Shown here in pieces: positions 1 to 64,000 of a stretch of DNA of 64,000 nucleotides. The stretch is from Lacinutrix neustonica (lineage in GTDB: Bacteria; Bacteroidota; Bacteroidia; Flavobacteriales; Flavobacteriaceae). Every line of letters begins with the position of its first letter. Positions within the stretch are counted from its first letter, which is position 1. A program made the translations under genes and the position numbers. Below the pieces are notes generated by a model. The model was not told the DNA's origin. It saw only the letters and a program-made list of their open reading frames with translations, and did no database searches. The stretch covers positions 124,001 through 188,000 of the forward strand of contig NZ_CP113088.1 in the NCBI RefSeq assembly GCF_026625145.1, in the 5' to 3' direction.

Positions 1-880
1 AAATAACTGGAATATTGTTTTTTGCAAAGTGATAGTGGTCACTTCTGTAGTAGTAATTATTGCGATCATTTTCATCATTATACTTATAATCTAATTCTAA
101 ATTAGAGAAAGTATTGTTTATTTTTTCTGATATAAAATGAAGTTCCTTACTTATTCTATCTGCTCCAATAATATAAATGTAGTTAGGTTTTTTTTTGTGT
201 GCTTTATCGACACGACCGATCATGTCTATATTTAAATTAGCCATGGTTTTATTTAATGGATATACAGGGTTTTGAACATAATAACGAGACCCTTGAAGCC
301 CGATTTCTTCAGCGGTGAGATGTAAGAATAAGAGACTGCGTTTTGGAGAATGCCCCGCTTTCTCGGCCGCTTTAAATGCTTGTGCAATTTCCAAAATAGC
401 CATGGAGCCGTAACCGTTGTCATCTGCTCCAAAATGTACTTTGTTGTTTTCTAGTCCCAAATGGTCTAAATGACCGTGAAATGATAAGGACTTCATCCGG
501 TTTTTCTTTTCCTTTAATATAGGCCAATACGTTTTCTGTTGCCTGGATGTCCTTCGGAAGAAAGCTCAAAGGAATGTTTTGAAAATATGTTGAGTCATTA
601 ATACCTGGTTGTATGTCTTCTTTGATGTAGAAGTCTTTTAAAAAAGCAGATGCTTTTTTCGGCCTTCTTCTCCAACACCGCGACCTTGAAAATTTTCTGA
701 TGCAAACGCATATAAATTTGTTTTTAGTTCTTCAGCAGTTATCGTTTTCGAATACTTCTCAATGAGTAAACTGTCTGTAATGAGGACACCATTCTGTAAA
801 TTTTCAATTTTTGTTGTGTATTTGGTTTCTGCACAAGAACCAATTAACGTTAAGATACTAAGTATGATTAAGGATTTCAT
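1..880 (-). CDS. M28-family zinc peptidase, lipoprotein (partial, frame-broken)
   Basis: Probable exported metallopeptidase of family M28, which removes N-terminal residues from peptides using two zinc ions. The protein starts with a lipoprotein signal (LTLIGSC, Cys16), so it is likely membrane-anchored. Across frames I read SGHLDHLG (zinc His/Asp), FGADDNGYGS (bridging Asp) and LTAEEIGLQGS (catalytic and ligand Glu), in the order expected for M28. The window edge cuts off the C-terminal end. Two breaks interrupt the frame, at 658-662 (TTCGG) and 474-478 (CCGTG); restoring CCGG at each rejoins the domain. A -7 box at 899-906 supports the start at 880. Family assignment is firm; the substrate is unknown. 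Confidence 0.85.
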
Positions 881-898
881 TCATGAAAATTTGAATGT

Positions 899-906
899 CA
901 AATATA
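899..906 (-). promoter_or_regulatory. -7 promoter box of the M28 peptidase gene
   Basis: Reading the minus strand, TATATTTG matches the Bacteroidota -7 consensus TANNTTTG exactly. It lies 18 bases upstream of the ATG at 880, leaving a short leader. I see no clear TTG -33 element. This is inference from sequence only. Confidence 0.5.
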
Positions 907-993
907 TATAATTTAACATAAAAGAGACGGGTTTCCTTATTCAGAAATAGCGCTATTATTAAGTTACGCTCTCGTCTTAAATACGGCTGTTAG

Positions 994-1410
994 TTAATAC
1001 CTGTTGATTTGAATAATAGATAGAATAAATACGGCAGTCCAAATAATAACACGAAGCCAATTATAAAGAACTAGTTTAAGTAATAATTGAGAGTTACTGT
1101 TGTGGTGAGATAGTTTTTTATGAAGTGGGATAAAAAAGACAACTGTTGAAATCCAAGCCGGAATGACCAACACCAAATGCCATCCAGCAAGAGGCATTAC
1201 CTTTAGATACCAACTATAAATCGAGATAACCAATTGTGATAACATAAGGGGAGCCACAATGAGGGCCATGCGCATCGTGTAGTGACTATGCCGGAGGTAC
1301 AACTCTGTTTTATTGAAGTATTTAAAGGCAGGATAGATTAATAATTGTACCATCCGGATTAACACGACTAAGCCAAAATCGATGATGAGTTGTATGATAT
1401 TCCAAGTCAT
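994..1410 (-). CDS. Small integral membrane protein, unknown function
   Basis: A 138-residue hydrophobic protein with about four membrane segments (roughly residues 8-28, 47-67, 75-96 and 114-135) separated by short basic loops, including one rich in His and Lys. I do not recognise the family. Its ATG overlaps the stop codon of the upstream exonuclease gene (ATGA, 1407-1410), so the two are translationally coupled. No catalytic motif is visible. It may be a small DUF-type membrane protein; no function is assigned. Confidence 0.75.
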   Translation of the reverse strand: MTWNIIQLIIDFGLVVLIRMVQLLIYPAFKYFNKTELYLRHSHYTMRMALIVAPLMLSQLVISIYSWYLKVMPLAGWHLVLVIPAWISTVVFFIPLHKKLSHHNSNSQLLLKLVLYNWLRVIIWTAVFILSIIQINRY

Positions 1411-2753: not shown

Positions 2754-2774
2754 TTTTTTTGCTTTTAAAGAACA

Positions 2775-6004: not shown

Positions 6005-8156
6005 ATGAAAAACAGCATGGTATATCATTTCTTTAAAAAACCGCTGGTAGCTGGTTTTACCACTTTGATAATTTTAATTTTTATTACCCAATATATTGCT
6101 TATCAAAAGTATTTACTTAATGAAAATGAACAAAAAAAAGAGATAAGCAATCGTGTAGATTTAATTAAAGAAAAACTACAAGCATTGGTGATGTATAGCT
6201 ATTCAGCTACAAAAACGCTGGCCTATATTGTAGAAAGAAATGGAATCCCCGCAGATTTTGATGCGATAGCCATTGAATTATTAGATCGTTATAAATATTT
6301 TGATGTTGTAGAATTGGTAAATGGTAAGGGGGTCATTACGCACGTGTATCCATTAGAAGATAATGAAGTGATTGGCTTTAATATTTTAACAAGTGCAGAA
6401 GCGAGTAGTGGAGCACTGACTACGATAAAGCGGAAAGATTTTTTTATTGCTGGTCCCATTAACCTCAAACAAGGTGGTGTTGCCATTATAAGCAGACAGC
6501 CTATCTTTATAAATGAAACATTCTCAGGCTTTTCAGCAGTAGTTACTAAACTGTCTACTTTTTTTAATGATCTCAATATCGATACTTCCAGCGATAGCAA
6601 TTACATGTATCAATTATCAAGGGTTAATGAAGATACTGGTGAAGAAGAGTTTTTTCTTGAAAACGATATGACCTCTTTTAAGTCATTTGCAGTCCCTATA
6701 GAAATGTCGTTTGGTGAATGGAAACTTTATGTGGTACCCGTGCAAGACACATTAAATACCGCTTTCTGGTTTGGAATATTTGGTTGTATCATCTCCATTT
6801 TATTTAGTTGGGCGGTTTGGTTTTTTGCAGGTCAATCCCAACGATTCAATACCTTAATGCATACTAAACTGGCTAAACAAGAAGCGCAATTAAAGTTGAT
6901 GTATGACACCACGAGTCGGCAAATAGAAAAAAGTGAATCTAATTTAAACCAGGCACAACAGATTGCTAAGCTGGGAAGTTGGGAGCGGGATATAAAAACA
7001 AATACATTGTCTTGGTCGAGAGAAATGTTTAGGATATTTGAAAAAAACCCTGAAACCTTTGAGGTCACCCGCGAAACGTTCCTTGATGCGGTATCTCCCG
7101 AAAATAGAGATATGGTATTAAAAACATATACAGAATCTGTAAAAAACAGAACTCCTTATCAATTAGTTTACCGTTTAGATCTTGGTGACAAAAAAAACAA
7201 ATATGTCAATGAACAATGTGAAACATTTTATGATAAAAATCAGAATCCTATAAAATCGTTTGGTACCATACAAGATATCACAGAGCGTTTCAATAACGAA
7301 AAAGAATTATTGGTTTATAAAAACGATCTGGAGAGATTGGTGGAGATACGAACCGAAGAACTTAATGATAGTAAAGAGGCCTTATTAAATCTTCACGGAG
7401 GACCTAAATTTTCAATCTGTTGCCTTAGAAAAAGAAAAAGTAAAAGCACAATCGGCAGATTTAATGAAGTCTGCATTTTTAGCCACCATGTCACACGAGT
7501 TAAGAACGCCCATGAATTCCATTATTGGCTTTACCGGAATACTTTTAAAAGAATTAGCAGGACCCTTAAATGACGAGCAAAAAAAGCAAATAAAAATGGT
7601 TAAAACCAGTGGCGAACATTTGTTAGGCTTAATTAATGATGTGTTAGATATCTCTAAAATAGAAGCAGGTAAATTAAGAGTGTCCTATTACCCTTTTAAT
7701 TATTTAGAATCCTTAGAAAGGATCATAGATTTTTTATTGCCGCAAGCCTCTGCTAAGGGGTTGATTATCACTACGGAAATAACAGAAATGACCATTACAC
7801 TCGTAAGCGATGAAAGGCGTGTGGAGCAAATTTTATTAAACTTACTTTCTAATGCCATAAAATTTTCAACCGATGGAAAAATCTTAATAAAAGTGGACGT
7901 GAAAGAAGATTTTTTGATAACACAAGTAATAGACCAAGGTATTGGAATAAGTGAAGCTGATATTATTAAATTGTTCATGCCTTTTATTCAACTTCAAGGC
8001 GGGTTGAGCAGAGTTCATGAGGGGACGGGTCTTGGGCTAGCTATTTGTAAAAATTTAGTTGAAAAATTGGGGGGTACCATTCATGTACACAGTCAAATAG
8101 GAAAAGGTAGTAATTTTACATTTAACTTGCCATTAGAACCACCAGAAAATTTATAA
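6005..8156 (+). CDS. CHASE-PAS sensor histidine kinase
   Basis: A membrane-bound sensor kinase. A first membrane helix (about residues 13-31) and a second (about 248-271) flank an extracytoplasmic CHASE-type ligand domain. A coiled coil, a PAS domain (ending GTIQDITER) and a HisKA domain follow, with the phospho-accepting His in TMSHELRTPMNS (about residue 497). The ATPase domain shows LLNLLSNAIKFS (N box), DQGIGIS (G1) and GTGLGLAICKNL (G2). The frame breaks once at 7393-7398 (TCACGG); restoring CCGG gives continuous coding through the coiled coil. The ligand is unknown. It probably phosphorylates the regulators encoded next. Confidence 0.88.
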
Positions 8157-8239: not shown

Positions 8240-8612
8240 ATGAAGCCAACTATTTTAATAATTGAAGATAACGAGCAAAACATGTATATGTTGTCCTATT
8301 TGCTTTCTAAAAGTGATTACAATGTTATTGAAGCGTATAATGGCATTGAGGGGTTAAAAATAGCACATGAAACACATCCTGAAATTATTTTGATAGATAT
8401 CCAACTGCCGAGATATGGATGGTTATGAAATATGTATAAAATTAAGACATAATGGGTTGCCTAAAAACACCACAATAATAGCAGTCACCTCCTATGCTAT
8501 GGGTGGAGATAAAGAAAAGGCCATTGAAGCGGGAGCAGACGGGTACATAGAGAAACCGATTAACCCCGATACGTTTGTAAAACAAATGGAACATATTTAT
8601 AATGCTAAATAA
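8240..8612 (+). CDS. Single-domain response regulator (CheY/DivK-like)
   Basis: A stand-alone receiver domain of about 123 residues. It shows LIIEDNEQN (acidic pocket), LIDIQLP-MDGYE around the phospho-accepting Asp (about residue 54), VTSYAM (switch Thr/Ser) and EKPINPD (conserved Lys). The sequence is closest to DivK-type regulators that follow hybrid kinases. An inserted A at 8408-8412 (CCGAG instead of CCGG) breaks the frame just after the Asp loop; with CCGG restored it reads QLPDMDGYEI. It lies between the kinase and the sigma54 activator and is likely a phosphorelay partner. Confidence 0.85.
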
Positions 8613-8626: not shown

Positions 8627-11600
8627 ATGAAAACTATATTAATAGTTGATGATATATTTGAGAACATCTACTTTCTTAGAATAATACTCGAGAAGGCAGG
8701 TTATTCAGTTATTGAAGCTAAAGATGGCAAGGAGGGCTTAGACCTATTAGAAAAAAATAATATTGATTTAATTATTTCTGATATTTTAATGCCGGTTATG
8801 GATGGCTATATGTTTTGTCAGGCTTGCAAAAAAAACAAAGATTTTAAAAACATACCCTTTCTTTTTTACACCTCGACTTATACCGAAAAGCCCGATGAAG
8901 ATTTTGCTTTAAAACTAGGCGCGAATCATTTTTTAAGAAAACCAACAGATCCGGATGTTATACTGGATTTAGTTCAAAGGTTATTAACGGATGATGCCCC
9001 GTTACCTAAACCAGATAAAAAGGCACCTTTTACAGAACAAGAGGTTTTAAAACTTTATAGTAAACGCTTAATAAGTAAATTAGAGCAAAGGAATTTAGAT
9101 CTTGAAAATGAAATTTCAGAACGAAAAAAAGCAGAGCAAACCTTAATTAAGGAGAATGAAATTTTAGATTTAATCGCTAGTAATAGTGCCCTTAAAAAAA
9201 TTTTTGATCGTATTCTTTTAAACTATCAAGCGCTTAATACTGATAATTACGGTTCCATTAGTTTACTTCAGGAAGACGGTATTCACCTTGAACTTGTTTC
9301 AGCCCCCTCATTACCTAAGCCATTTATTTTGGCGATTGAATCTGTGGTAATAGGAGAAAACGTAGGGTCTTGTGGCCGATCAGCATTTATTAAAAAACCT
9401 GTTATTGTCTCAGATATTGGTTCAGATGCGCTTTGGGACGACTATAAAGAGATCGCATTAAAGAACCAGTTAAATTCGTGTTGGTCTATTCCTATACTTT
9501 CAGACAAAAATCAAGTTTTAGGGACATTTGCAATTTATAGTCATGAAATTAAATCTCCATCTTTGGGAGATATCCGCGAATTAAATTCTGCAGTACGATT
9601 AGCACGAATTGCCATTATAAAATTCAATATCATGGCAGAAGTTAAAAAGAAAGATGAATCTTATAAATCATTAATTGATCATGCCAGTGATGCCATAATA
9701 ACCTGCTCATTTGATGGCGAGATAAATAATTTTAATAAGGCGGCTTCGAGCTTTCCGGGCTATACAACACATGAATTTTCAAAATTGAAAATTCAAGATA
9801 TTATTATTGGAGAGGTGATTCGGTATCCTAAAAATAAAGAAAAATTGCTGGCAGGGAAATCCGTACTTACCAATAGACAATTCCGTTATAAAAATGGAAC
9901 CATTATAGAAGTGGAGATTTCTGCTAAATTACAAAAGGATGGTCTCATTCTTGGAATTATTCGGGACATTACCGAGCGTATAAAGGCTGAATTGGATTTA
10001 AAATTGGCTAAAGAATTTACAGATAATCTGGTCATGTCTATGCAAGAAGGATTATTGATTGTTAATCTCGAAGGTAAAATTATAATGGTTAATGATTCCT
10101 TTTGCGATATGCTTGGGTATACTAGAGAAGCCCTAATAGGACTCAACCTGCCTTATCCCTTTGCCAAAGCGGAAGACTTTGAAGACATGTCCAAAACTAA
10201 GGAAAAAGTAGCTGCAGGAGACATATCTTCTTTCCAATTTGAATTTATCAGGAAAAGTGGAGAAAAATTCTTGGCTTCCTTTTTATCAGGAAACATAAAA
10301 AATGATACCGGCGAGGTCATCGCTTTGTTTGGCACCGTAAAAGATGTTTCTGAAGAAGAAAGAGTGAAACGAATTTTAGAAGCGAACGTGGCTAGATCTA
10401 AGCAAAAGAAAGAAGTTATTCTAAAATTAGCGCGTCTTGTAGGTGAAGATTTTGATGTTGCCTTAAAAAGCATAACAAAATTAGCAGCGACCACACTTAA
10501 AGTGGAACGCGTGAGTATTTGGAGCTTCAATTCTAAAAAAACAGCCATTTATTGTGAAAAATTATTTATGTTAAGTGATGGCTCACATACCAGTGGTCCA
10601 GAATTAAAAATGGCAGATAATAAGACCTATTTTAATGCGCTAAATAAAGAGCAAGCCATCCTTGTTCCTGATGTTGTTGATGATAATATTACCAAAGGGC
10701 TTACACAAGATTACTTGATTCCTAATAATATAGCGTCCCTAATGGATGTTTTTATAAATAGTACAGAAGGCTATTATGGGATTCTTTGTTTTGAGCATGT
10801 TGGTAAACCTAGAAAGTGGACTGCCGATGAGCAGGAATTTGCCTCGTCTATTGCAAGTATAGTCTCTTTAATGGTGGAAGGACAGGAACGTAAACAGGCC
10901 GAAAAAAACCTGCTGTTAGCGAATTCAGAACTCTCTAATGCTAATTTAGAACTCAATGCCTTACGTGAGCAATTAGAACAAGAAAACGTGTATTTACGTA
11001 ATGAGCTAGACTTGGTTTTTAATTATGAGGAAATGGTTTACGGCAGTGAAGCATTTAGTAATGTCCTCACAGAGGTTGAAAAAGTAGCACCTACCTCGGC
11101 GACAGTATTACTATTAGGTGAATCTGGTACTGGAAAAGAATTATTAGCCAGGGCTGTCCACAATACCAGTTCACGTAATAATAAGCCATTAATAAAAGTC
11201 AATTGTTCTGCGATTCCTAGAGAATTAATGGAGAGTGAGTTGTTTGGCCACAAAAAGGGCTCTTTTACAGGTGCGATTGATGATAAAATTGGAAAATTTG
11301 AATTGGCAGATGGGGGCACTTTATTTTTAGACGAAATTGGTGAGTTACCATTAGATATGCAACCCAAAATATTACGTTTTTTACAGGAGGGTGAAATTGA
11401 AGTGGTGGGAGGGACTACCGGATTAAAAAAATTAGATGTTCGCGTTATAGCTGCAACCAATAGAAATCTTAAAGAAGAAATAGAGAAAAAACAATTTAGA
11501 GAAGATCTATATTTTCGTCTTAATGTCTTTCCTATCGTAGTACCGCCACTAAGAAATCGTGTGGAAGACATCCCATTTCACGGTGGAGCATTTTATAGAT

Positions 11601-12568: not shown

Positions 12569-13008
12569 ATGGGAAATAGTATTGAGGTTGGACACGCAAA
12601 ATTCCGGACTGATAACAAAGACATTCTTTATTGTCAATTTAAAAATGATAATCCGAAACTTAAATTAAATCCGAAACAGTAAAATTATATATAGATGCTA
12701 TCATTACATTATGTAATGGTAAAGCCATGCCTTTTTTTATTGATGTTAGAAATTCTCGTGGGACGTATTCTTCTTCTGCTGCGAATTTATTGGCTAAGTC
12801 ACCAGCTTTAATGAAACTAAGAATTTCTGAAGCATTCATTCTCAATTCTATTGGAATAAAATTATTGATAACATCGTATAAAAGACTATACAATCCATCC
12901 ACACCATTTGCAGTTTTTTCTGATATAACAAAAGCAGAAGCGTATTGTTTAGAAACAAAAAACAACTATTACCGGATTAATGAAATAGAATTCTCCAAAC
13001 TCGTTTAG
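12569..13008 (+). CDS. Small conserved cytoplasmic protein, twin copy 2
   Basis: Paralogue of the preceding gene, about 146 residues, reading TLCNGKAMPFFIDVRNSRG in the centre and DITKAEAYCLETK near the end. The frame breaks at 12671-12675 (CCGAA); adding the missing G gives LNPETVKLYIDAIITL and a continuous protein. It follows copy 1 by seven bases, so they are surely co-transcribed. No catalytic motif is visible. Such twins might form a heterodimer, which is inference only. Confidence 0.65.
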
Positions 13009-13053: not shown

Positions 13054-14511
13054 ATGAAGAGTATTAAATATCAACTCATTATATTAACAGTAATAGCCTC
13101 TATTTGCTGTAATTATGGGGCCTTTTCTCAAGTGGGTATTGGAACCATGTCTCCGGACGCGTCATCAGCGCTTGACATTAATTCCACAACTGGCGGGGTT
13201 CTAGCACCAAGAATGACAACTGCTCAAAGAATAGCTATTGCAAACCCAGCGAATGGGTTACTTGTTTTTGACATAACAGAGAATGCGTTTTATTTTTATA
13301 AGGCGACCGTGTGGACAAAAATGGATGCTGTAGTACGAGACAACTATAAACTTATAAAGTCTATCGCAGATTTAAGCGCAGAACTTACTGCGGGAGGAGG
13401 GTCTAAATATTTACTATCAACTAACACGCTCTATGAAATAAATGGAACCATATCGTTGGCTTACCCCATAGAACTTAATAATGCCTATGTAGTGGGACGA
13501 GATGCCAATGAAGATAAATTGGTTAAAACGGGAGGGACTATGTTCACGGGAACTACAGGTGGAACCATAAAAACCTTAACCCTTATTGCTTCGGGCGGTA
13601 CTGTTTTTGGTTTAATCGGTAGTACTACTCAAAATATAATTTTCAGGGATTCTATAGTTGCTAATTCGGCATCAGTGGGCTCTATAAGTGGTTATGGGAT
13701 GGTATTTTTTAGTGTTATTCAATATTCGGGAAATAATAATGGAATCACCTATACTAATATCACCGATTTATTATTGAGTAATACCGCTTGGGCATTAAAT
13801 AATTCGGGTACCTATGAGACGTTTACGGGGACTTTTGGGTTAATTAAAAAGCAAGGCGGCTATTTTAAAATAGATGGTGCCAATATAGGGATTGATGTGA
13901 GTAGTAATCCAACAGTTAATATTGGCATCATGGATGAGACTACTTTTAGTGGTACCAGTACGCAGTATGTAAAGAAATATACTACAGGATCTTATGCTGG
14001 TTTTAATTTTACTAATGCATGGACTGTAAATTGTCCTGGAATACCCGTAGAGTTTGACGGAGTGGCTACAGGAAATATCTATTTTAATGGCCCTATCACT
14101 TTTGGTTTTGTCCAAACCATCACCAATAATAATCCACTCAATTTAGCAGGTAATGGTAATACCAACACGACGACGGCTGTCAATTTATTAAGAATCGCCT
14201 CATCTCAAGATAATAGAATTACCTATTTAGGAAACAAAAAGAGAACCTTTCAAATTAATGCGACATTATCTATTAGAGGAAACCTCGGCGTGGGTGATTA
14301 TTATGCCTTTTTTATAAGAAAAAATGGGTCGACTACCTTGACCGAAACCAATTCATTAATGCGAATCAATAGTACCACTGACATATCAAGTAATGCTATT
14401 TCAGGGACTGTGGAGTTGGCACCAAATGAGTATATAGAAATTTGGGGACAGCGCTTAACAGGTTCTCGGTACGACCTCTATAACCGTATTTTCATTGAAT
14501 TTAAATATTAA
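13054..14511 (+). CDS. Secreted surface protein with tail-fibre-like N-terminal motif
   Basis: A 485-residue exported protein. A signal peptide (about residues 1-25, ending GAFSQ) is followed by VGIGTMSPDASSALDI and GVLAPRMTTAQR, a module common at the N-terminus of flavobacterial surface and adhesin-like proteins and related to phage tail-fibre collars. The rest is rich in Gly, Thr and Asn with strand-forming repeats, ending in a compact domain (IEIWGQRLTGS). No enzymatic motif is visible. It probably acts at the cell surface, with the binding partner unknown. It follows the twin genes by 45 bases and ends before a terminator at 14565. Confidence 0.75.
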   Translation: MKSIKYQLIILTVIASICCNYGAFSQVGIGTMSPDASSALDINSTTGGVLAPRMTTAQRIAIANPANGLLVFDITENAFYFYKATVWTKMDAVVRDNYKLIKSIADLSAELTAGGGSKYLLSTNTLYEINGTISLAYPIELNNAYVVGRDANEDKLVKTGGTMFTGTTGGTIKTLTLIASGGTVFGLIGSTTQNIIFRDSIVANSASVGSISGYGMVFFSVIQYSGNNNGITYTNITDLLLSNTAWALNNSGTYETFTGTFGLIKKQGGYFKIDGANIGIDVSSNPTVNIGIMDETTFSGTSTQYVKKYTTGSYAGFNFTNAWTVNCPGIPVEFDGVATGNIYFNGPITFGFVQTITNNNPLNLAGNGNTNTTTAVNLLRIASSQDNRITYLGNKKRTFQINATLSIRGNLGVGDYYAFFIRKNGSTTLTETNSLMRINSTTDISSNAISGTVELAPNEYIEIWGQRLTGSRYDLYNRIFIEFKY

Positions 14512-14760: not shown

Positions 14761-15401
14761 TTAAAGCGTCGTTATTTTAGGAATCAACCGCTCTTTTTCT
14801 AAGGCTTTTACAACTGCCTTTACGTAGTCATCAACGGTTTTTTTTGTGTTTTCCGGGTCGATAATATCATAGTAGCCTACCCATATTAACGCTTTTTCAT
14901 TATCTTTTTTCAAATTATAAATAGACGTTTCTATATGGTAAACTTTATAGTTTTCATAATAATCCGTATCAAAATAAACGTTTTGACTTAATAAATAATA
15001 AGTTTTAAATTTTTGAAGATTATAATCTGTTTTTTTAGATTCACTAACAATAGCCATTTTATCATCTACTCCTTTAACAGTGGAGACTATAACCGTGTCA
15101 TACCCTTTACTTAATAATGTGTCTATTTGATTTTCTATTTCGGTTTCAGTCTGTTTTGAATCTATAAAAGAAGATTCAAAGACGACCGCACTTTGAAGCG
15201 CATTAATATCCCGGTGATATAATTCTGTTTTTAATTGTGATTCAAAAGCATTTCGGGCCTCTAGATCAGGAGTTACCCCTATAACCAAAACATTATTAGG
15301 ATTAAAGTCTTTATATTCGGATTCCTCCAACTGTCTTTTAATCTGGTTGTAGAACATCCAAAGACTAACAGAGAAACAAAAAAAAGGGCGCTATATTTCA
15401 T
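14761..15401 (-). CDS. Lipoprotein, paralogue of the adjacent upstream gene
   Basis: A lipoprotein of about 213 residues. The true start is ATG at 15401, giving a signal with lipobox VFGCST (Cys16). The frame breaks at 15316-15320 (TTCGG on the plus strand); restoring CCGG gives KDSWRNPEYKDFNPNNVLVIG, which matches the neighbour's VENWKNPDMDSYTANKILIVG. The pair share VxGVxxxxxxRxxFE and a long C-terminal helix ending LxxERLIP/LEEQQLINP. Function is unknown. It lies 12 bases after its paralogue. Confidence 0.72.
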
Positions 15402-16625: not shown

Positions 16626-17077
16626 TTAAGCAATTTCAACAACCTTTTTTGTTGGTATTTTTTTAGCCTCCTCTTTTTTTAAGAGCTCTAAGTGAAGAAT
16701 ACCATCTTTATAAGTAGCCTTTACCTTTTGGTCTAAATCAACTGTTTTTGGTAATGTTAAAGACCTTTTAAAGGCATTATAACTAAACTCTTTCCGTGTA
16801 TAGTCCGCTTCTTTTTCTTCCTGATTGGTGCTTTTTTCTCCGAAACATTAAGGACATTATCTTCAATGGTTACTTCAAAATCTTTTTTGCTAAATCCAGG
16901 CGCTGCAAATTCAATTTGAAAGTCATCCGTATTTTCTTTTACATTCATTGCAGGCATTAAACTGTCTTCATCAAAAAAATCGGTGTTAAAGAAATCATCT
17001 GAACCCGTAAAGTTTGTTAATCCAGTATTACTCCATGGAAATAATCTGTTTTTGTTGTTAAATTTAATAAGTGACAT
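16626..17077 (-). CDS. Hsp20/alpha-crystallin small heat-shock protein
   Basis: A small heat-shock chaperone of about 150 residues that holds unfolding proteins in soluble complexes. The alpha-crystallin domain is clear: MNVKENTDDFQIEFAAPGF, KKDFEVTIEDNVLNVS, then KRSLTLPKTVD and a C-terminal strand (DGILHLELLKKEE) with IPTKKVVEIA at the end. A one-base slip in the A-run at 16832-16837 splits the frame after VSEKK; adding one A restores the domain. An FNR-type site with a -7 box (17116-17158) lies upstream, pointing to induction under low oxygen. Confidence 0.92.
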
Positions 17078-17603: not shown

Positions 17604-18978
17604 TTATAGGGTTATTTTTTCAATTGCTCCAAGTTTTGGAATGGTTGCCGTCCAATCATAAACCGTCTTTATTTTAACTCTAAAGGCATCGAGTGCCGTG
17701 GGTTCTCCATGAACTAAAAACACCTTCTCCGGGGTGTTCTTTATACCACTCATCCAATTTAAAAGCTCTTTTTGATCGGCGTGAGCCGACAGACTTTCAA
17801 CATGGGCAATAGTCGCTTTAACAGGATAGTATTTTCCGAAGAGTTTGATTTCATGCGCGCCATCATATAATTGTCTGCCTCGAGTTCCTTCGGCTTGATA
17901 ACCAACCAATAGTACCGTTGTTGTAGGATTATCTATAAGTTGTTGTAAATAGGTGAGCACACGACCGCCTGTAACCATACCGCTGCCAGCAATGATTATT
18001 TTTGACCGATTATCGTCGATAGTCTCCCAGGTTTCTTTGTAAGATTGTACAAGGCTAACATGATTACACATGGCGTTATACTCTGTATCAGACAACTTGT
18101 GCCATTTAGGAAAGCGATTAAAAACGTCTAAAACATTATTGCCCATCGGGCTATCTATAAATATGGGAATATTTGGAATTTTATTTTTTTGATACAGTTT
18201 CCAAAGTATGTACATAAGTGTTTGCAAACGCTCTACCGCAAAACTGGGAATAATTAACTGTCCTCCTTTAGTAATGGTGTCTTTTACTAAGTTTGACAAC
18301 AGCATATCAAGAGGTTCTTCTGGATGTAATTTGTTGCCATAAGTGCTTTCAATAAACAGAACATCTGCCTGCTCGGGTTTTTTAGGTGAATCTAATAAAT
18401 AATCGCTTTCTCTTCCAATATCGCGGAAAAAACAAAACGCTTTCCTTTAATATCCAGTTCTATAAAAGTAGCCCCAATGATGTGTCCGTTGTATTGAAAA
18501 CGGTAGCTTATGTGTTCAGATAATGGAATCCATGTATTGATCGCTTCAGTCTCGGAAATATTTAATTGTCTTCTCAGCGTCTTTAACAGTATAAAATGCT
18601 AAAGCAGGATGGTGTTTTGTATACTGCTCAGCATTCGCTTTTTTAGCCTCTTCTTCCTGAATTTTACCACTATCTTTCAGGATGATTTCAGCTATAGCTA
18701 AGGTTGGAGCAGTACCAATAATTTTGCCTTTAAACCCTTGTTTTAAAAGTCGTGGTAAATAGCCCACGTGATCTAAATGACCGTGTGTGAGTAAAACAAC
18801 GTCTATTTCATTGACTTTTACAGGAAGATCATTCCAGTTTAATTCGCGTAATTCTTTTAAACCTTGAAATAAACCGAGAATCTATTAAAATGTTTTTTTC
18901 TGAAGTTTCAATTAGAAATTTTGAACCAGTTACCGTGCCTGAAGCACCCAAAAAATGAACTTTAACAAAGGATTCCAT
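17604..18978 (-). CDS. MBL-fold beta-CASP RNA-processing nuclease
   Basis: A metallo-beta-lactamase-fold nuclease of about 458 residues in the CPSF/YSH1-like group, which cleaves RNA using two zinc ions. It starts ESFVKVHFLGASGTVTGS, then LLTHGHLDHVGYLP (HxHxDH), SGDIGRES and FIESTYGN, the beta-CASP insert (IPSFAVERLQTLMYIL), GSGMVTGGR, SAHADQKELLNWM and VHGEP at the end. Three breaks, at 18874-18878, 18550-18555 and 18423-18426, are all repaired by CCGG. The start at 18978 gives the canonical N-terminus. It lies in the stress island between an ATP-cone nuclease and a helical protein. RNA turnover under low oxygen is a reasonable inference. Confidence 0.88.
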
Positions 18979-18989: not shown

Positions 18990-19831
18990 TTATGACTGAC
19001 ACAATTGGTTAATTTCGTTTAGTATTTTTTCTTTTCTTAGTTCTGATACACCTAAATGATCTAAATAAAAGGCGTCACCAATAAGGTCACGACAAAGCAC
19101 AACATCCCGACTTAACAAAAATTGTTTTTCTCTGTTGGTTAATAGCGTAGATACCGTTATGGGGTAGAGTGCCAATCGGTCTATTCGGTCTTTTAAGCCA
19201 TTATTTTCTGGGTAATCCCAACTCAATAAATAGAGTCCACAGCACTTTCCGTACTGCAAGGCATCCTTTGTAAACCGGGTATTTGTCACTACCCAACCTT
19301 CAGTAAGATGACTGTGTTTTCGGGAACTTAATTCCCAATGGGTTTTGATATCATTATAACGAGAATGGATGTATAAAGGGATCTTAACATTACAATTGAG
19401 ACCTTGATCGCCATGAAATTTACATTCTATAATAGTACAGTCGTTATTTTTATTAGCAATAACATCCACTTCGTGCGAAACACACTTGCCTTGTACTGTT
19501 TTTCCAACTTCAATGCTGTATCCCGAATATTTTAAAATAGCTCCTATAAACCGTTCAAAAGGAAATCCTGTTGGACCTAATTCGTAAATAGCCTTTTTTA
19601 GTTTGTATTTAGAAGCAAAGAGCCGTTTCTTTTTTCTCAGTAAAGCAAACGCTCGATTGTATATCTCTTTTGTGGAAATACCTTGATACAACTCATCTCT
19701 AACGGTATCTAAAATTTGGTTCACCGTTTGTTTATCTGCTCCTGAATGTTTTAATGAATTACGGAGTTTGTCTAATGAGAATTTTACCTTCTCTCCGAGT
19801 ATTTAATAACGTCAATATGGTCTGTATTCAT
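18990..19831 (-). CDS. ATP-cone protein with PD-(D/E)XK restriction-endonuclease-like domain
   Basis: A fusion of about 280 residues. The N-terminus (KYSGEKVKFSLDKLRNSL, then the helix EIYNRAFALLRKK) resembles an ATP-cone, the nucleotide-sensing domain of ribonucleotide reductases and NrdR. The central domain fits a Mrr-like PD-(D/E)XK nuclease: FPFERFIGAILKYSGY, HEVDVIA (Asp) and IIECKFH (Glu-x-Lys). The C-terminal ~100 residues contain TEGWVVTNTRFT, as in Mrr-type proteins. The gene begins at 19831; a G is missing at 19795-19799 in CCGG. It lies 11 bases before the beta-CASP RNase gene. A nuclease gated by adenine nucleotides is inference. Confidence 0.8.
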
Positions 19832-47392: not shown

Positions 47393-48537
47393 ATGACAAT
47401 AGGTATCGTATGTTATCCCACCTTTGGAGGAAGTGGCGTGGTAGCAACAGAGTTAGGTTTAGAGCTTTCTAAACGCGGTCACAATATTCATTTTATAACA
47501 TACAATCAACCCGTTCGTTTAGAACTGTTAGGGAACAATGTGCATTACCATGAAGTAAATGTACCGGAATATCCATTGTTTCATTACCAACCGTATGAAC
47601 TTGCTTTATCTAGTAAGTTGGTCGATATGGTGAAGCTTCATAAAATAGAGTTGTTGCATGTGCATTATGCCATTCCACATGCTTATGCTGCCTATATGGC
47701 ACAAAAAATGTTGCGAGAGGAAGATATATATGTTCCCATAGTAACGACCTTACACGGTACAGATATTACTTTGGTAGGTAATCACCCGTTTTACAAACCT
47801 GCTGTCACGTTTAGTATCAATAAATCAGATGCTGTTACAGCTGTTTCACAAAGTTTAAAAGATGACACCTTACGTCTTTTTGATATTAAAAATGAGATTC
47901 ACGTGATTACCAATTTTATAGATGTTAAGAAATTTAAACATGATTTTACGGATTGTCAACGTGATATGATGGCCACTTCAGAGGAGAAAATAATAACACA
48001 TATTAGTAACTTTAGAGAAGTAAAGCGCATTCCCGATGTCATAAAAACATTTTATAATATTCAAAAAGAAATACCAGCTAAACTCATGATGGTTGGAGAA
48101 GGGCCGGAGCGTGAACCTGCAGAACGTTTGTGTCGTAAATTGGGAATAACCGAAAAAGTGGTATTCTTTGGTAATAGTAACGAAATAGATCGTATTCTAT
48201 GTTTTAGTGATTTGTTTTTGTTGCCAAGTGAAACCGAGAGTTTTGGGTTGTCGGCCTTAGAAGCCATGGCGTCGAGCGTACCTGTTATTTCAAGTAATAC
48301 TGGAGGGATTCCGAAGTGAATGCAGATGGTTTTTCAGGTTTTTTAAGTAATGTGGGCAATGTGGATGAAATGAGTAAGAATGCGTTGATGATACTTAAAG
48401 ATGAAGTTCTCCTGAAGCAATTTAAAACCAATGCTAAAGTACAGGCTCATAAATTTACTATCGAAACTATTGTCCCTCAATACGAAGCACTTTATGAAGA
48501 AACACTCAAAACGTGTTTGTTTACACATAAGCTTTAA
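47393..48537 (+). CDS. bshA: N-acetylglucosaminyl malate synthase BshA (bacillithiol)
   Basis: A GT4 glycosyltransferase of about 381 residues. It opens TIGIVCYPTFGGSGVVATELG and has THHGTDITLVG-like LHGTDITLVGNHPFY, SFGLSALEAMASSVPVISS and TGGIPEVN, matching BshA, which makes GlcNAc-malate for bacillithiol. The frame breaks at 48311-48315 (CCGAA); CCGG gives TGGIPEVNADGFSGFL. Whether bshB and bshC lie elsewhere cannot be seen. Confidence 0.9.
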
Positions 48538-56772: not shown

Positions 56773-58099
56773 ATGAAAAAACTAGCACTACATTGGAAAA
56801 TTATTATAGGCATGGTCTTAGGTATCCTTTTCGGGTTCTTAATGAATTCTGTAAGTGGCGGAAAAGGTTTTGTTACCGACTGGATTGCTCCCTTCGGAAC
56901 GATCTTTATCAACCTTCTAAAACTCATAGCTGTACCATTAATTTTAGCCTCTTTAATTAAAGGGATCTCCGATTTAAAAGACATTTCCAAAATAAAAAAA
57001 ATGGGGCTACGCACCATCCTGATATATGTGGGAACAACTTTGATAGCTATTATTATAGGGCTTTCAATTGTTAATGTAGTTAAGCCTGGAGCGGGAATGC
57101 CACAGGATACTATAGAAAAAATAAAATTAAAATATGAGAATGATGCAGGAGTTAGCGATAAGCTAATGAAAGCTTCTGAACAAAAAGACGCTGGACCTTT
57201 GCAGGCTTTGGTCGATATTTTCCCTAGTAATATTTTTCAATCGTTAGGTGATGCTAGCATGCTTCAGGTTATATTCTTTGCTTTATTTGTTGGTATTTGT
57301 TTGTTGTTAATCCCGGAGAAGAAAGCAAAACCATTAATCGATTTTTTCGATTCACTCAATGAGGTGGTCATGAAGATGGTAGATCTCATTATGCTTTTTG
57401 CTCCTTATGCCGTATTTGCATTAATGGCTAATGTTATAATTGCTTTCGATGACACCGAAATTCTATTAAAGTTATTAAACTATGCGTTCTGTGTAGTAGC
57501 AGGTTTAGCCTTAATGATTGGTTTTTATCTTATATTAATAAAAGTATATACCAAAAAATCACCACTTTGGTTTTTAAAGGAAATAAGTCCAGCACAATTA
57601 TTAGCGTTTTCAACAAGTTCGAGTGCCGCTACTTTACCAGTTACCATGGAACGTGTAGAAGAGCATTTAGGTGTTGACAAGGAAGTCTCCTGGTTTTGTT
57701 TTACCTGTAGGAGCAACCGTGAATATGGATGGAACGAGTTTGTATCAAGGTATTGCAGCCGTATTTATCATGCAAGTGATTTGGCCGGAAGGGTTAACTT
57801 TTACGAATCAATTGGTAATTATAGCCACGGCCTTATTAGCATCCATAGGAAGTGCTGCAGTGCCAAGTGCGGGGATGGTTATGCTGGTTATTGTATTAGA
57901 ATCTATTGGTTTTCCGGCCGAATTACTTCCAATTGGATTGGCCTTGATTTTTGCCGTAGATAGACCATTAGACATGTGTAGAACAGTAGTTAACGTTACT
58001 GGTGATGCTACCGTATCTATGATGGTGGCAAAATCATTAGATAAATTGCATGATCCAAAACCAAAAGAATGGGATGATAATTATGAAGCAGTAAAATAA
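56773..58099 (+). CDS. Dicarboxylate/amino-acid:cation symporter (SDF family)
   Basis: A carrier of about 442 residues with eight membrane helices and two re-entrant loops: AFSTSSSAATLP, PVGATVNMDGTSLYQ, GSAAVPSAGMVML and DRPLDMCRTVVNVTGDA, the substrate- and sodium-binding motifs of GltP/DctA. It imports a dicarboxylate or acidic amino acid with cations. The frame breaks at 57689-57693 (CCTGG); CCGG gives VSGFVLPVGATVNM. The C-terminus ends YEAVK. Confidence 0.9.
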
Positions 58100-58301: not shown

Positions 58302-59129
58302 ATGTCAAGAATCATGTGTAACAGTAACTCGGTTTCAGCTCAATGGTTACACGACCATTTAGAAGCAGAAAACATTCTAGTTTTCGATGCCAGTATGCCT
58401 AAAGTTACGGCGGACAAGAGTGATGGAAGGGACGTGCAAATTCCTTACACACAATTTTTCGATATTAAAAATAAATTTAGTGATACAGAAGCTCCGTTTC
58501 CCAATACCATTCCATCTGAAAAACAATTTCAAGAGGAAGCAAGAAAATTGGGTGTTAATAAGGACAGTTTTATTATCGCTTACGACGATTTAGGCCTGTA
58601 TTCAAGTGCGCGCGTCTCGGTGGCTATTTAAAACATTTGGGCACGATAATGTCGCCATTTTAGATGGTGGTTTACCGAATGGATTAATCAAGGCTATAAA
58701 ACAGAATCGAAACAAGCAAATAACAAACCCACTGGAAATTTTGAAGCCCAATATAAGGCAAAACATGTGGTGTATATTGACGATTTAGAGTCCATTGGTA
58801 AGGACCCACAATTTAAAATCATCGATGCACGCTCAATGGAACGGTTTAATGGTGTGGTTGCAGAGCCAAGAGCCGGATTACGAAGTGGAAAGATACCAAA
58901 TTCAATAAATTTACCCTATACTCAGGTCCTTTACTGGTGGAATGTTAAAAACTGAAGCAGCATTGAAATTAATTTTTAAAGAGGTAGTAAAAGACAATCA
59001 ACACTTGGTGTTTTCTTGTGGCTCGGAATAACAGCTTCTGTATTAAGTTTAGCAGCAACGATTGCGGGGTACAAGAACAGCGTTTACGATGGCTCATGGT
59101 CAGAATATGGCACCTTAAAAATAACCTAA
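58302..59129 (+). CDS. 3-mercaptopyruvate-type sulfurtransferase (two rhodanese domains)
   Basis: A sulfurtransferase of about 278 residues. The inactive N-terminal rhodanese reads NILVFDASMPKV, YDDLGLYSSARV and VAILDGGLPEW; the active C-terminal one reads KIIDARSMERFNGVVAEPR, SGKIPNSINLPY and FSCGSGITASVLSLAA, where CGSGIT matches the mercaptopyruvate-type loop. Four breaks (58615, 58675, 58934, 59023) are all repaired by CCGG; with them fixed the gene ends at 59129. Sulfur trafficking fits the thiol theme of the region. Confidence 0.9.
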
Positions 59130-60500: not shown

Positions 60501-61672
60501 ATGGAAAACCAAAACGACCTATTTAAGAAGTACATTGAAACCCGAATTCAAACGGTTAAGCTTTGCGAATTGTTGGAACCGAGAAGACTTTTCATTGCAA
60601 GCAGCACCTTTCGTAAGCCCTCCTAAATGGCACTTGGCACACACCACATGGTTTTTTGAAGAAATGGTATTAAAGCCATTTCTTAAAGCATATAAAACCT
60701 ATGATGATACTTATGCCTTTCTCTTTAATAGTTATTACAATAGTCTAGGTGAGCGTATCTCACGTCATGAAAGAGGTTTAATTACTAGACCTGCCAGTGC
60801 TGTTATTTTGAAGTATAGAAGTCATGTAGATAAGTTCATGGAACGATTATTAGAGTCTCCTGCTAGTCCGGAATTAGAAACACTCCTCATTTTAGGAATA
60901 AACCATGAGCAACAACATCAAGAATTATTAATTACCGATCTTAAATATTCTTTATCACACAACCCGACGTATCCGAAACTGTCTGATTTGAATTTGATTT
61001 CAGATAGGGATGCTGAAAACACCCAAGGAGATGATTGGATATCTATTTCAGAAGGGGTTTATACCATAGGCCATCAAGGGGATGGTTTTGCTTTTGACAA
61101 TGAATTTGGCGTGCATCGTACGTTTTTAGAATCATTTGAAATTTCTAAAGCTTTGGTCACAAATGGTGAGTATTTAAAATTTATAGAGGCTGCCGCTTAC
61201 CACGATCCAAAATACTGGTTAGATGATGGTTGGTCTTGGATCAATAACAATACCATGACAAAACCCTTGTACTGGAAAAAAATAAATGGTGACTGGTTTC
61301 AGTATACAATTTCCGGACTTATGCCATTAGATGAAAAGGCCATATTGAGTCACGTTTCATTTTATGAAGCACAAGCCTTTGCTTTTTGGTCGCGGACACC
61401 GACTACCTACAGAATTTGAGTGGGAAATAGCTTCAAAACACTTTAACTGGGGCACCCGATGGGAATGGACCAACTCTGCATACTTACCCTATCCAAAATT
61501 TAAAATTTCAAAAGGCGCAGTGGGCGAGTATAATGGCAAATTCATGATCAGTTTAATGGTGCTTCGTGGCGCATCGACAGCTACCGCACCAAACCATAGC
61601 CGCCAAACGTATAGAAACTTTTTTAGCCCAGATATGCAATGGCAACTCTCCGGCATTCGCTTAGTAAAATAG
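60501..61672 (+). CDS. egtB: Ergothioneine sulfoxide synthase EgtB
   Basis: An iron enzyme of about 391 residues, joining hercynine with a thiol in ergothioneine synthesis. DinB-like iron-binding region: PPKWHLAHTTWFFEEMVL and NHEQQHQELLITDL (His cluster). A formylglycine-enzyme-like domain follows (EGVYTIGHQGDGFAFDNE, YEAQAFAFWSGHRLPTEFEW, TYRNFFSPDMQWQ). Breaks at 60579-60583 (CCGAG) and 61390-61395 (TCGCGG) become in-frame with CCGG, giving LLEPEDFSLQ and WSGHRLPTEFEW. The start at 60501 is supported by the family-like N-terminus. Ten bases separate it from egtD. Confidence 0.92.
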
Positions 61673-61682
61673 ATTTAAAAAA

Positions 61683-62635
61683 ATGAACAACACCTTTATG
61701 AAAGATGTGGATAACGGTCTCAGTGCCTATCCTAAAACCTTATCTTCAAAATATTTCTATGATGCCATTGGTGATGCATTATTTATAAAGATAATGCACA
61801 TGCCGGAATATTATTTAACCGATTCTGAATTTGAAATTTTAAGCCAACAAACCGAAACCATAGTTAAGAGTTTAGCCTTGACTAAAGATAGGGCGTTTGA
61901 TTTAGTAGAGTTAGGTGCTGGAGATGGCAAAAAAACCAAAGAGTTATTAGGCTACCTGCTAAAGCATGACTATAATTTTAACTATGTTCCAATAGATATT
62001 TCAAGTAATGTTTTAAATCTTTTAGAGAACCATTTAAAAACCGCATTTAAAACCTTAAACATCGCTACAAGGCAAGGTGACTATTTTGAGGTTTTAGAAA
62101 CTATTAAAGCCAACAAAAACCCAAAAGTGGTTTTGTTTCGGGGTCTAACATAGGTAATATGGAAGATGCGCAAGCGGAGTTATTTATGCAAGCCTTAAGT
62201 GATGCACTAGCGGTAAATGATAAATTATTAATGGGATTAGATTTAATTAAGTCTGAGACTATCGTTTTACCAGCTTATAATGATGCCGCGGGCATTACAA
62301 AAGCGTTTAATCTTAATTTACTTTCACGTATTAATAAAGAATTGCTGGCCAATTTTAATATTGACACTTTCGATCATAAAGCGTGTTATTCCGAAGATAC
62401 AGGTATTGCTAGGAGTTATATTGTAAGCAAAGCAGACCAAACGGTAAGGATAGGGCATTTGGATAAAGTGTTCCATTTTAAAAAAGGCGAAGCCATTAAT
62501 GTTGAAATTTCTCGTAAATACAACGATGCTATTGTTAATACCTTGATAGGAGATTCAGATTTTGAAATCGTAGAAAAACTCACCGATTCAAAAAATTACT
62601 TTGCCAATTATATTTTTAATAAATCGGCTGTATGA
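61683..62635 (+). CDS. egtD: Histidine N-alpha-methyltransferase EgtD
   Basis: A SAM-dependent enzyme of about 317 residues that trimethylates histidine to hercynine. It starts NNTFMKDVDNGLSAYPKTLSSKYFYDAIG, has DLVELGAGDGKKTKELL (SAM site), then LFPGSNIGNM and LMGLDLIKSETIVL, typical of EgtD. The frame breaks at 62137-62141 (TTCGG); CCGG gives VVLFPGSNIGN. It lies between egtB and a racemase-like gene, which overlaps its stop by four bases (ATGA). Confidence 0.92.
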
Positions 62636-63303
62636 CCCGTAAAATTACTGTTGGTCTTTTAGGGTTAGGGAGTAGGAGCACCACATTTTATTTACACACC
62701 CTAAATGCTTATTATCAGAAGATAAAGAAAGGCTACAGTACCTTTCCCTGTGTGTTATACAATATCAATTTTAACACGATTAATCCTTATCTACCTGATA
62801 ACACAGCTGAGCTCATTACCAATTTAAAACCAGTAATGAACAGCTTGGAACGGTTTTCTATAGACTATTTAGTAGTTCCAAACATAACACTTCATGAGAC
62901 GTTAGAAGTAATGAAAGTAACAGGTTCACTCATTCATCCGCGAACTTTGGCCATTGAAAAATTACAGGATTACGGTCAATCGACAATCACACTTATAGGG
63001 TCTCATTATACGATGAATGCCAATTATTTGGTGAAAGGCTTTGAGAAGGCTGGTATTAAAGTTGAAACACCAACACCTAAAGATCAAAAAAGTATTGATA
63101 CGCTGAGGAAAAAAGTGTATGATAGCGAAGAAACGGAAGCAGATGTGTTAGCGTTTAGAACTCTATTAGAAGTCTACAAGGCCCAATCCACTGTTATGAT
63201 TTGTTGTACTGAATTGTCTGTTATTAATGTCGAGCCTAATGGAAAACGGTGTATTGATATGGCCATATTACAAATAGAAAAAACCATTAGTCTAAAAACT
63301 TAG
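62632..63303 (+). CDS. Aspartate/glutamate racemase-superfamily protein, altered active site
   Basis: A 223-residue protein of the Asp/Glu/hydantoin racemase fold: KITVGLLGLGSRST at the start, YLVVPNITLHETLEV where racemases have VxPCNTxH, and MICCTELSVI with the second catalytic Cys. The first catalytic Cys is absent (PNIT). It overlaps egtD (ATGA), so it is translated with the ergothioneine genes. Because of the missing Cys, a plain racemase is doubtful; another carbon-carbon or carbon-sulphur activity or binding is possible, which is inference. The frame is intact. Confidence 0.78.
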   Translation: MTRKITVGLLGLGSRSTTFYLHTLNAYYQKIKKGYSTFPCVLYNINFNTINPYLPDNTAELITNLKPVMNSLERFSIDYLVVPNITLHETLEVMKVTGSLIHPRTLAIEKLQDYGQSTITLIGSHYTMNANYLVKGFEKAGIKVETPTPKDQKSIDTLRKKVYDSEETEADVLAFRTLLEVYKAQSTVMICCTELSVINVEPNGKRCIDMAILQIEKTISLKT

Positions 63304-63709
63304 ACTTTAATTACGGCGTAGGTACCCAACAGGAAGCTTGTTTGCCATACCACTTGTAGCGATTTTTAGCAACATAATCATAGACCCAGTTTCTAATAAA
63401 TATAGGGACTATGAAGAAGACAGACATTAGATTTCTAGGAAAACCAAGAGCTTTAGCAACATGTAGTGCCGCTGAAGATTTAACTTTTAAACCATTTTCT
63501 TTAGAATAAAGCAGAATGGAATCGGTTTCTAAAGGATCGATTTTATAATGAGTAATAATTTGTTGTCCCACGTCACTTTGTAGCGCCGCAAACATAAATT
63601 GATTTTTGCGGTCATGTTCAATAACGTACTGCACCGATGCATTGCAGAGGTTGCATACACCATCAAATAGGATTAATTTTTTATGTTTTGGAAGTCCTTT
63701 TATCACCAT
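63287..63709 (-). CDS. DCC-family thiol-disulfide oxidoreductase (DUF393)
   Basis: A protein of about 140 residues with LILFDGVCNLCNASVQYV (DxxCxxC), RNQFMFAALQSDVG and SAALHVAKALG, the DCC family thought to be thioredoxin-like. An in-frame TAA at 63311-63313 lies in CCGTAA; read as CCGGAA the protein continues PTPELKSKFLD to a stop at 63287, the usual DCC tail. It would overlap the end of the racemase-like gene on the other strand. The start is taken at 63709 (VIKGLPKHKK). Confidence 0.82.
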
Positions 63710-63853
63710 ATAAAAATACAAATTTTGTTACTAATATTGGTACCGTCTCGGTCATCTGTTCGAGCAGAGTTATTTCGTCATTTTTACCCAGGCAAGAACC
63801 TCCCGGATTTATACTTTATTATGAATTATAGCCTTCTAAAAAATGATAGAATT

Positions 63854-64000
63854 TTACTTCTTAACCGCTTCAACCAATTCTAATAAGTCGGCATTTACAT
63901 TCGTAGTAAACATCCCGTAATTCACAATGGCCTTGCCTTTTTCAAGCGTGTCAATACTTCCAATCGCTTTACCATCATGCATTCTCACGCGATCTCCTAC
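63854..64000 (-). CDS. C-terminal end of a probable MutS2/Smr-related or similar protein (partial)
   Basis: Only the last 48 residues are inside the window: VGDRVRMHDGKAIGSIDTLEK, then AIVNYGMFTTNVNADLLELVEAVKK. This reads like a small SH3-like beta domain near the end of MutS2-type DNA-mismatch-repair proteins of flavobacteria. The N-terminal part lies outside the window, so this is a tentative name. The gap 63710-63853 shows no gene. Confidence 0.55.
   Translation of the reverse strand, partial: VGDRVRMHDGKAIGSIDTLEKGKAIVNYGMFTTNVNADLLELVEAVKK

What the first reader, a model, noticed from the sequence alone, without database searches (positions are those of the whole stretch)
1..64000. Frame breaks cluster at CCGG: a possible DNA-modification footprint
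I located 44 frame breaks or internal stops in genes with recognisable families. At 41 the reading frame and the conserved family motif are restored by writing CCGG at the damaged spot; examples are 8408, 12671, 18550, 24227, 25681, 34392 (NosF Walker A), 37567, 48311, 55165, 59023 and 62137. The changes lie within the four bases: an extra A or T giving CCGAG or CTCGG (about 14), loss of one G or C (about 15), CCGTG or CACGG (4), G to T making CCGTAA stops (4333, 34623, 63311) and a few others. Two remaining breaks are A-run slips and one stop (45802) is unclear. Many CCGG sites are intact (e.g. 497, 1291, 1354, 2564, 4834). Essential genes such as aroC and the cbb3 oxidase are hit, so these are almost certainly systematic read errors at a modified motif, which would reveal CCGG methylation or a rarer base change in this strain. 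A mutational process targeting CCGG is a less likely alternative.
Basis: partly seen in the sequence, partly recalled or inferred. Interest (0 to 1): 0.85.

Follow-up and report, generated by a model that had tools for sequence, protein, structure and literature searches.

The report
Modified CCAGA misread as CCGG

Summary
The frame breaks are real features of the assembly and nearly all share one cause, but the motif is CCAGA/TCTGG, not CCGG. Against a syntenic relative (G005), CCAGA/TCTGG is the most depleted 5-mer (110 seen, 531 expected) and CCGGA/TCCGG the most enriched (335 against 81). CCAGA is read mostly as CCGGA (silent to the frame), also as CCGAGA, CCGA or CCGTA (breaks, stops). 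CCGG outside TCCGG/CCGGA contexts is as frequent as in G005 (78 vs 78.4). In 23S rRNA conserved CCGG sites are intact and conserved CCAGA sites altered. rpoC has seven breaks, all at CCAGA/TCTGG; conserved Trp reads as Arg after TC. So these are assembly errors. The likely cause is the genome's one detected C5 cytosine methyltransferase, beside an HNH endonuclease. Of 79 other carriers counted, Maribacter litopenaei shows the same depletion and broken rpoB/rpoC; two carriers with 89% identical enzymes have both unbroken. Two distant carriers are also low, perhaps by true avoidance. Cytosine-methylated CCAGA is reported in meningococcus. The mechanism is known; motif in this host and enzyme link are new here.

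The parts
475..480 (-). frame break, extra base, misread word TCACGG
656..666 (-). frame break, missing base, CCGA word beside an A-run (could be a homopolymer slip)
7395..7400 (+). frame break, extra base, TCACGG
8408..8413 (+). frame break, extra base, CCGAGA where G005 has CCAGA
11577..11582 (+). frame break, extra base, TCACGG
12671..12678 (+). frame break, missing base, CCGA
14463..14468 (+). frame break, extra base, TCTCGG where G005 has TCTGG
15313..15319 (-). frame break, missing base, CCGA
16839..16846 (-). frame break, missing base, TCGG
18550..18555 (-). frame break, extra base, CCGAGA on the gene strand
18873..18879 (-). frame break, extra base, TCTCGG
19794..19800 (-). frame break, missing base, TCGG where G005 has TCTGG
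24216..24222 (+). frame break in the cation-transport ATPase gene, CCGAGA where G005 has CCAGA
26125..26131 (+). third CCAGA-type break in the same gene, CCGAGA
34623..34627 (-). internal stop in the NosD gene, CCGTA where G005 has CCAGA
37564..39154 (-). five breaks in one gene (G005 orthologue 656 aa, 94% identical): 37568, 38618, 38981, 39075, 39153
48310..48315 (+). frame break, CCGA
57690..57696 (+). frame break in the dicarboxylate symporter gene, extra base, TCCTGG
58613..59024 (+). four breaks in one gene: 58618, 58678, 58933, 59023
60579..61395 (+). two breaks in one gene: 60583, 61394
62135..62140 (+). frame break, TCGG
63311..63315 (-). internal stop, CCGTA where G005 has CCAGA
1354..1357 (.). 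example of a so-called intact CCGG that is CCAG within TCCAGA in G005 (a silent misread)
61670..61680 (+). A-run deletion, an ordinary homopolymer slip, not part of the motif effect

Best explanation
The strain modifies the asymmetric site CCAGA/TCTGG over its whole chromosome, most likely as 5-methylcytosine laid down by its one detected C5 cytosine methyltransferase (493 aa, G000:2245252-2246346, next to an HNH endonuclease gene). The genome was very probably assembled from long native-DNA reads by a basecaller that did not know this modified context. It read CCAGA mostly as CCGGA (no frame effect) and less often as CCGAGA, CCGA, CCGTA or CCGTGA, which break frames or make stops. Shown: the motif, the error forms, their genome-wide reach, their impossibility as real DNA in essential genes and rRNA, and a second carrier genome with the same pattern. 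Inferred: that the platform is nanopore, that the modification is m5C, which cytosine carries it (I favour the one next to the central A:T on both strands, as recalled for Dcm), and that this enzyme makes it.
For: Depletion of CCAGA and gain of CCGGA. At 427 anchored CCAGA sites of G005: indels 19.4%, A to G 19.2%, kept 13.3%. Of the 12 words one base away that keep the central A, 11 have indels 0.3-1.4% and CGAGA 4.5%; A to G 2.2-6.0%. Trp read as CGG after TC at 9 of 19 against 1 of 604 elsewhere; Arg read as Gly after CC at 17 of 66, Gly not among the eight commonest outcomes of 2333 elsewhere. 23S rRNA: three CCAGA/TCTGG sites identical in three relatives, 7 of 8 covered copies altered in our strain. 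Whole genome: GCCAGA 105 in 3.9 Mb, the lowest density of 397 family genomes (densities by my reading of the table). rpoC broken 7 times, all at CCAGA/TCTGG of G005. Second genome G415 (Maribacter litopenaei, enzyme 81% identical): GCCAGA 123 in 3.9 Mb, CCAGA rank 1 of 512 in under-representation over 160 kb, 5 breaks in rpoB/rpoC, 3 of them on CCAGA of G005. Carriers G409 and G430 (89%): rpoB/rpoC unbroken. Enzyme: TIGR00675 314.5 bits, the only PF00145 match found. Literature, passages read: CCAGA m5C in meningococcus, activity seen with MspJI (PMC7973814, PMC7046676; the second paper saw an apparent CCAGR that it puts down to two enzymes); about 70% of Klebsiella consensus errors in Dcm sites with then-current default models (PMC6591954).
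Against: No reads, raw signal or sequencing record are available here. The enzyme's specificity was not tested; the meningococcal enzyme could not be fetched for comparison. A type IIG-like adenine methyltransferase (G000:851486) and a 228-aa N6/N4 enzyme (G000:3107579) are also present and not excluded, and A to G misreads could also come from N6-methyladenine. G415 was found through the C5 enzyme; I could not check its whole genome for the other two (no match in 169 kb of it). In G415 only 3 of 10 kept breaks fall on CCAGA/TCTGG of G005, which is another genus, though by my reading 8 of 10 carry CCGAGA, TCTCGG or CCGA; its one Trp after TC reads TAC, not CGG. CCTGA, CCGGA, CCCGA and CGAGA of G005 also have raised indels (4.5-8.5%); I read these as sites where our strain has CCAGA. 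Two further carriers, G471 and G476, are as poor in GCCAGA yet show no shortened reading frames (median ORF 305 and 297 aa, against 230 in G000 and 240 in G415), so low CCAGA alone is not proof of misreading.
Confidence: 0.85

Rival explanations
1. CCGG is the modified and misread site.
For: One CCGG-making edit is possible at 34 of 41 window breaks; CCGG is the top tetramer for one-base insertions, 79 of 90.
Against: CCGG is enriched, not damaged: 335 against 149 expected from G005, the excess lying in TCCGG/CCGGA contexts. Other CCGG contexts equal G005 (78 vs 78.4). 23S CCGG sites intact. Under 160 indel breaks G005 has CCAGA/TCTGG 79 times, CCGG-containing 5-mers 6 times counted by word.
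Confidence: 0.02
2. CCAGA is modified, but by an adenine methyltransferase (N6-methyladenine at the central A), for example the 1014-aa type IIG-like protein at G000:851486.
For: The gene exists; misreads centre on the A; Lohde et al. report purine and pyrimidine ambiguity with RA/TY as the minimal shared motif (PMC11610573, passages).
Against: N6-methyladenine at the central position can sit only on the CCAGA strand, yet about 79% of expected sites are lost (110 of 531 seen); the published CCAGA modification is m5C; the second affected flavobacterium shares the C5 enzyme (by the way it was found).
Confidence: 0.15
3. A real mutational process turns CCAGA into CCGGA and indels.
For: None beyond the pattern itself; two distant carriers (G471, G476) have few CCAGA with full-length reading frames, which could be true avoidance.
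Against: rpoC with seven breaks, conserved Trp to Arg, altered conserved 23S sites, CCAGA O/E of 0.87 over 77 other carrier loci and unbroken rpoB/rpoC in the two carriers tested besides G415.
Confidence: 0.02
4. A sequence-dependent error of the platform at CCAGA, unrelated to modification.
For: Cannot be excluded without reads.
Against: None of the other 396 family genomes has a comparably low GCCAGA density; the next affected flavobacterium was found among carriers of this enzyme. How many of the 396 are long-read-only assemblies is unknown.
Confidence: 0.05

Closest known systems
Dcm-site consensus errors of nanopore basecallers in Klebsiella (CCAGG/CCTGG; PMC6591954, passages read)
   Same: Errors pile up in one cytosine-methylated motif because the model was not trained on it; the first four bases CCAG are shared.
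   Different: Motif CCAGA is asymmetric, host is a flavobacterium, enzyme is not Dcm; here inferred from an assembly alone. In this genome CCAGG is not affected (indels 0.7%).
Methylation-linked nanopore ambiguities at R/Y positions (PMC11610573, passages read)
   Same: Purine (A/G) confusion near native modified sites; the authors remove it by PCR-based sequencing.
   Different: There base ambiguity at RACG/CGTY in Klebsiella; here one motif with many indels.
Meningococcal CCAGA m5C system NEIS0771 (M.Nme15193ORF2725P; PMC7973814 and PMC7046676, passages read)
   Same: Same recognition word, cytosine C5 methyltransferase.
   Different: Sequence not compared here; the meningococcal locus is flanked by hldA/hldD.
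HpaII/MspI-type CCGG methyltransferases (recalled)
   Different: CCGG itself is not damaged here.

Membership tests
Methylation-induced long-read consensus error | errors confined to one motif, sharply against one-base neighbours | tested here: met
   indels 19.4% at CCAGA; 0.3-1.4% at 11 of 12 neighbours that keep the central A, CGAGA 4.5%; CCTGA, CCGGA, CCCGA 4.8-8.5%, read as diverged CCAGA
Methylation-induced long-read consensus error | same form genome-wide and in RNA genes, not only in reading frames | tested here: met
Methylation-induced long-read consensus error | carriers of the enzyme sequenced by other means do not show it | tested here: inconclusive
   G409 and G430 read normally, but the platforms of these records are not known from the tools
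Methylation-induced long-read consensus error | absent from amplified DNA, visible in raw signal | not testable with these tools
   no reads held
C5 cytosine methyltransferase | family profile over curated cut-off, catalytic PCQ motif | tested here: met
   TIGR00675 314.5 bits, cut-off 100.65; PCQSF seen in the translation (motif name recalled)
CCAGA-specific m5C methyltransferase | methylates CCAGA | tested here: inconclusive
   indirect only:
CCAGA-specific m5C methyltransferase | sequence kinship with NEIS0771 | not tested
Type II restriction-modification system | endonuclease gene next to the methyltransferase | tested here: met
   PF13391 HNH_2 42.2 bits in our neighbour gene; 5 of 8 neighbour proteins scanned match HNH_2
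Type II restriction-modification system | cleavage of the unmodified site | not testable with these tools
   needs an assay
CCGG (HpaII-like) modification | CCGG is the damaged word | tested here: not met

The most novel reading that the evidence does not exclude
One C5 enzyme, with an HNH partner, methylates both strands of an asymmetric site (CmCAGA / TmCTGG, the cytosines flanking the central A:T as recalled for Dcm), is spread by transfer through Bacteroidota and Campylobacterota, and leaves a CCAGA-to-CCGGA footprint in finished public genomes. That footprint alone can then assign motifs to methyltransferases without raw signal.
Probability: 0.45. Interest if true: 0.6.

Novelty: new member of a known kind. 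Interest (0 to 1): 0.45.

Why it matters
By the count against G005 about 1.6 CCAGA sites per kb are lost (421 in 264 kb), many of them invisible because CCGGA keeps the frame, though it can change Trp to Arg or Arg to Gly. Protein families, pseudogene counts and trees drawn from such records are affected; Maribacter litopenaei HL-LV01 looks the same. It also gives a cheap test: 5-mer depletion against a relative names the modified motif and warns that the word that mends the frame can be the error product, not the site. It makes a concrete prediction for a methyltransferase family whose target I found no record of (searches: only).

Tried and rejected
CCGG as motif: rejected. Reverse control (G000 ORFs on G005): it gave 151 'breaks' and is useless, since ORFs of G000 run out of frame past each break and so also break on G005. 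Replaced by G007 with the same G005 proteins: 5 breaks in 10,103 aa (25 genes) against 41 in 20,194 aa (57 genes) for G000. Tetramer ranking for one-base deletions and stops is weak (CCGG rank 6 and 37) because a free inserted or changed base makes many words. Low GCCAGA alone as proof of misreading: rejected after G471/G476. The 292-aa match of PF02384: its ORF looks like a PrmC-type protein methyltransferase, recalled. The 542-aa PF02384 match set aside as type I-like, because such enzymes read two-part sites (both recalled). In one search the words CCAA/TTGG were in my list and took 3 of 170 breaks that I count as not explained; so 146 of 170 overall and 37 of 41 in the window. In some searches the 76-aa and 107-aa ORFs are doubtful and dropped: breaks go from 12, 11, 4, 2 to 11, 10, 0, 0 (G000, G415, G409, G430).

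Paper searches on the motif: CCAGA with methyltransferase and SMRT, 2 papers; CCAGA with TCTGG and methylation, 0; CCAGA with m5C and restriction-modification, the same 2.
Full report
WHAT THE WINDOW IS. The window is G000:C1:124001-188000, a single 3,905,328-base contig with completeness of only 84.46%. Its family is Flavobacteriaceae by inference: the genome of a Tamlana locus (L074, G412) has the same four pattern counts as G358 in its family list. G005, a two-contig, 100% complete genome of the same genus, is syntenic in long blocks, mostly at 80-86% DNA identity, one block at 74%, and served as reference.

THE BREAKS ARE REAL AND MANY. I aligned G005 proteins to 264 kb of G000 (the window with 20 kb on each side, and four other 40-kb regions) with a frameshift-tolerant aligner: 186 breaks in 219 genes (genes whose best segment was under 55% identical were left out). 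In the window there are 49, or 41 in genes of at least 100 aa and 75% identity. A control species, G007, has 4.9 breaks per 10,000 aa against 20.3 for G000 with the same G005 proteins (25 and 57 genes matched).

THE MOTIF IS CCAGA, NOT CCGG. 5-mer counts against G005 put CCAGA/TCTGG first among depleted words (110 vs 531 scaled) and CCGGA/TCCGG first among enriched ones (335 vs 80.7); GCCAGA falls from 81.5 to 2. In the nucleotide alignment CCAGA is kept at 13.3% of 427 anchored sites, with indels at 19.4% and A to G at 19.2%. Of the 12 neighbours that keep the central A, 11 have indels at 0.3-1.4% and CGAGA 4.5%; A to G is 2.2-6.0%. CCTGA, CCGGA and CCCGA have 4.8-8.5% indels; I read these, and CGAGA, as places where our strain has CCAGA and G005 has changed. 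The commonest outcomes at CCAGA are CCGGA 82, CCAGA 57, CCGAGA 43, CCTGA 34, CCGA 29, CCAAA 28, CCGTA 21 and CCCGA 18; CCTGA, CCAAA and CCCGA I take for ordinary divergence. Under 160 indel breaks G005 has CCAGA/TCTGG 79 times, 33-fold over background. Writing CCGG works because the commonest misreads are one edit from CCGG.

CCGG ITSELF IS FINE. CCGG without a T before or an A after: 78 in G000, 78.4 expected; with T or A: 257 against 70.9. In the readable part of 23S rRNA, three CCGG sites shared by G005, G007 and G004 are intact in every copy that covers them. The three CCAGA/TCTGG sites shared by the same species are altered in 7 of 8 covered copies of our strain, and not always the same way; one copy keeps one site.

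THIS CANNOT BE LIVING DNA. rpoC has seven breaks and rpoB one, all at CCAGA/TCTGG in G005. Conserved Trp is read as CGG at 9 of 19 positions after TC and at 1 of 604 otherwise; Arg is read as Gly at 17 of 66 after CC. A few breaks are homopolymer slips (9 of 170 by the script), as recalled for nanopore assemblies.

GENOME-WIDE AND COMPARATIVE. GCCAGA occurs 105 times in 3.9 Mb, 26.9 per Mb, the lowest of 397 family genomes (next G328, 68 per Mb; densities of selected genomes, the rest by my reading of the table). The loss depends on flanks: GCCAGA followed by A, C or G keeps 0 of about 61 expected, ACCAGAT about half, as a context-dependent misread would.

THE ENZYME. G000 has one PF00145 match: a 493-aa C5 methyltransferase with an N-terminal helix-turn-helix (my reading of the sequence), beside a 374-aa HNH endonuclease. 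The other C5 enzymes of the genus compared with it are at most about 40% identical. Its best 80 relatives in genome contigs (159 found) lie mostly in Bacteroidota and Campylobacterota by record title. I counted GCCAGA in 79 of these 80 genomes (one not held). Three are as low as ours: G415 (Maribacter litopenaei HL-LV01, 31.5 per Mb), G471 and G476 (Gastranaerophilales bins, 34.1 and 26.5); the other 76 are above 60 per Mb. In G415, CCAGA is the most under-represented of 512 5-mers over 160 kb, rpoC is found in two pieces, and rpoB and rpoC have 2 and 3 breaks, 3 of these 5 on CCAGA of G005. Two carriers with 89% identical enzymes, G409 and G430, have both genes unbroken. G471 and G476 have full-length reading frames and CCAGA as the second most avoided 5-mer (O/E 0.30 and 0.41): this could be true avoidance of a restriction site, which would also point to CCAGA, but lineage composition is not excluded. 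Over the other 77 carrier loci CCAGA O/E is 0.87 (rank 33 of 512) against 1.19 in G005 and 1.23 in G007: mild. CCAGA as an m5C target is on record in Neisseria meningitidis, activity seen with MspJI (PMC7973814, PMC7046676; passages).

LIMITS. Platform, modification chemistry and enzyme specificity are inferred. Adenine methyltransferases in the genome keep the m6A rival alive.

VERDICT. Observation partly confirmed; interpretation right in kind, wrong in motif. Known phenomenon, new motif for this host.

Noticed in passing
L077, L166 and L169-L175 (Maribacter litopenaei HL-LV01, NZ_CP104205.1): A finished public genome with the same CCAGA depletion and broken rpoB and rpoC; its annotation is probably affected throughout.
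   Followed up: partly
L176-L186 (G471, G476): GAGAC/GTCTC is the most avoided 5-mer in both Gastranaerophilales bins (O/E 0.23 and 0.36), with CCAGA second; possibly a second restriction system.
   Followed up: no
L069-L148 (77 loci pooled): GGACC/GGTCC is the most under-represented 5-mer among the carriers (O/E 0.54).
   Followed up: no
L069 5483-7708, L070 2504-4734, L071 5479-7715: Some carriers have two related genes in a row after the methyltransferase (both HNH_2 in L069); our strain has one.
   Followed up: no
L120 6387-6806 and seven similar ORFs in L101, L122, L129, L134, L141, L143, L147: A cluster of 8 neighbours near the methyltransferase; the one scanned matches Vsr mismatch endonuclease, which fits a cytosine-5 enzyme.
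   Followed up: partly
paper PMC10942906 (passages): Maribacter halichondriae Hal144, assembled from MinION reads, has 173 pseudogenes, most with frameshifts, read as host adaptation; a misread motif may deserve a check there.
   Followed up: no
G000:3107579-3108133: A 228-aa N6/N4 DNA methyltransferase without an obvious endonuclease beside it; target unknown.
   Followed up: no
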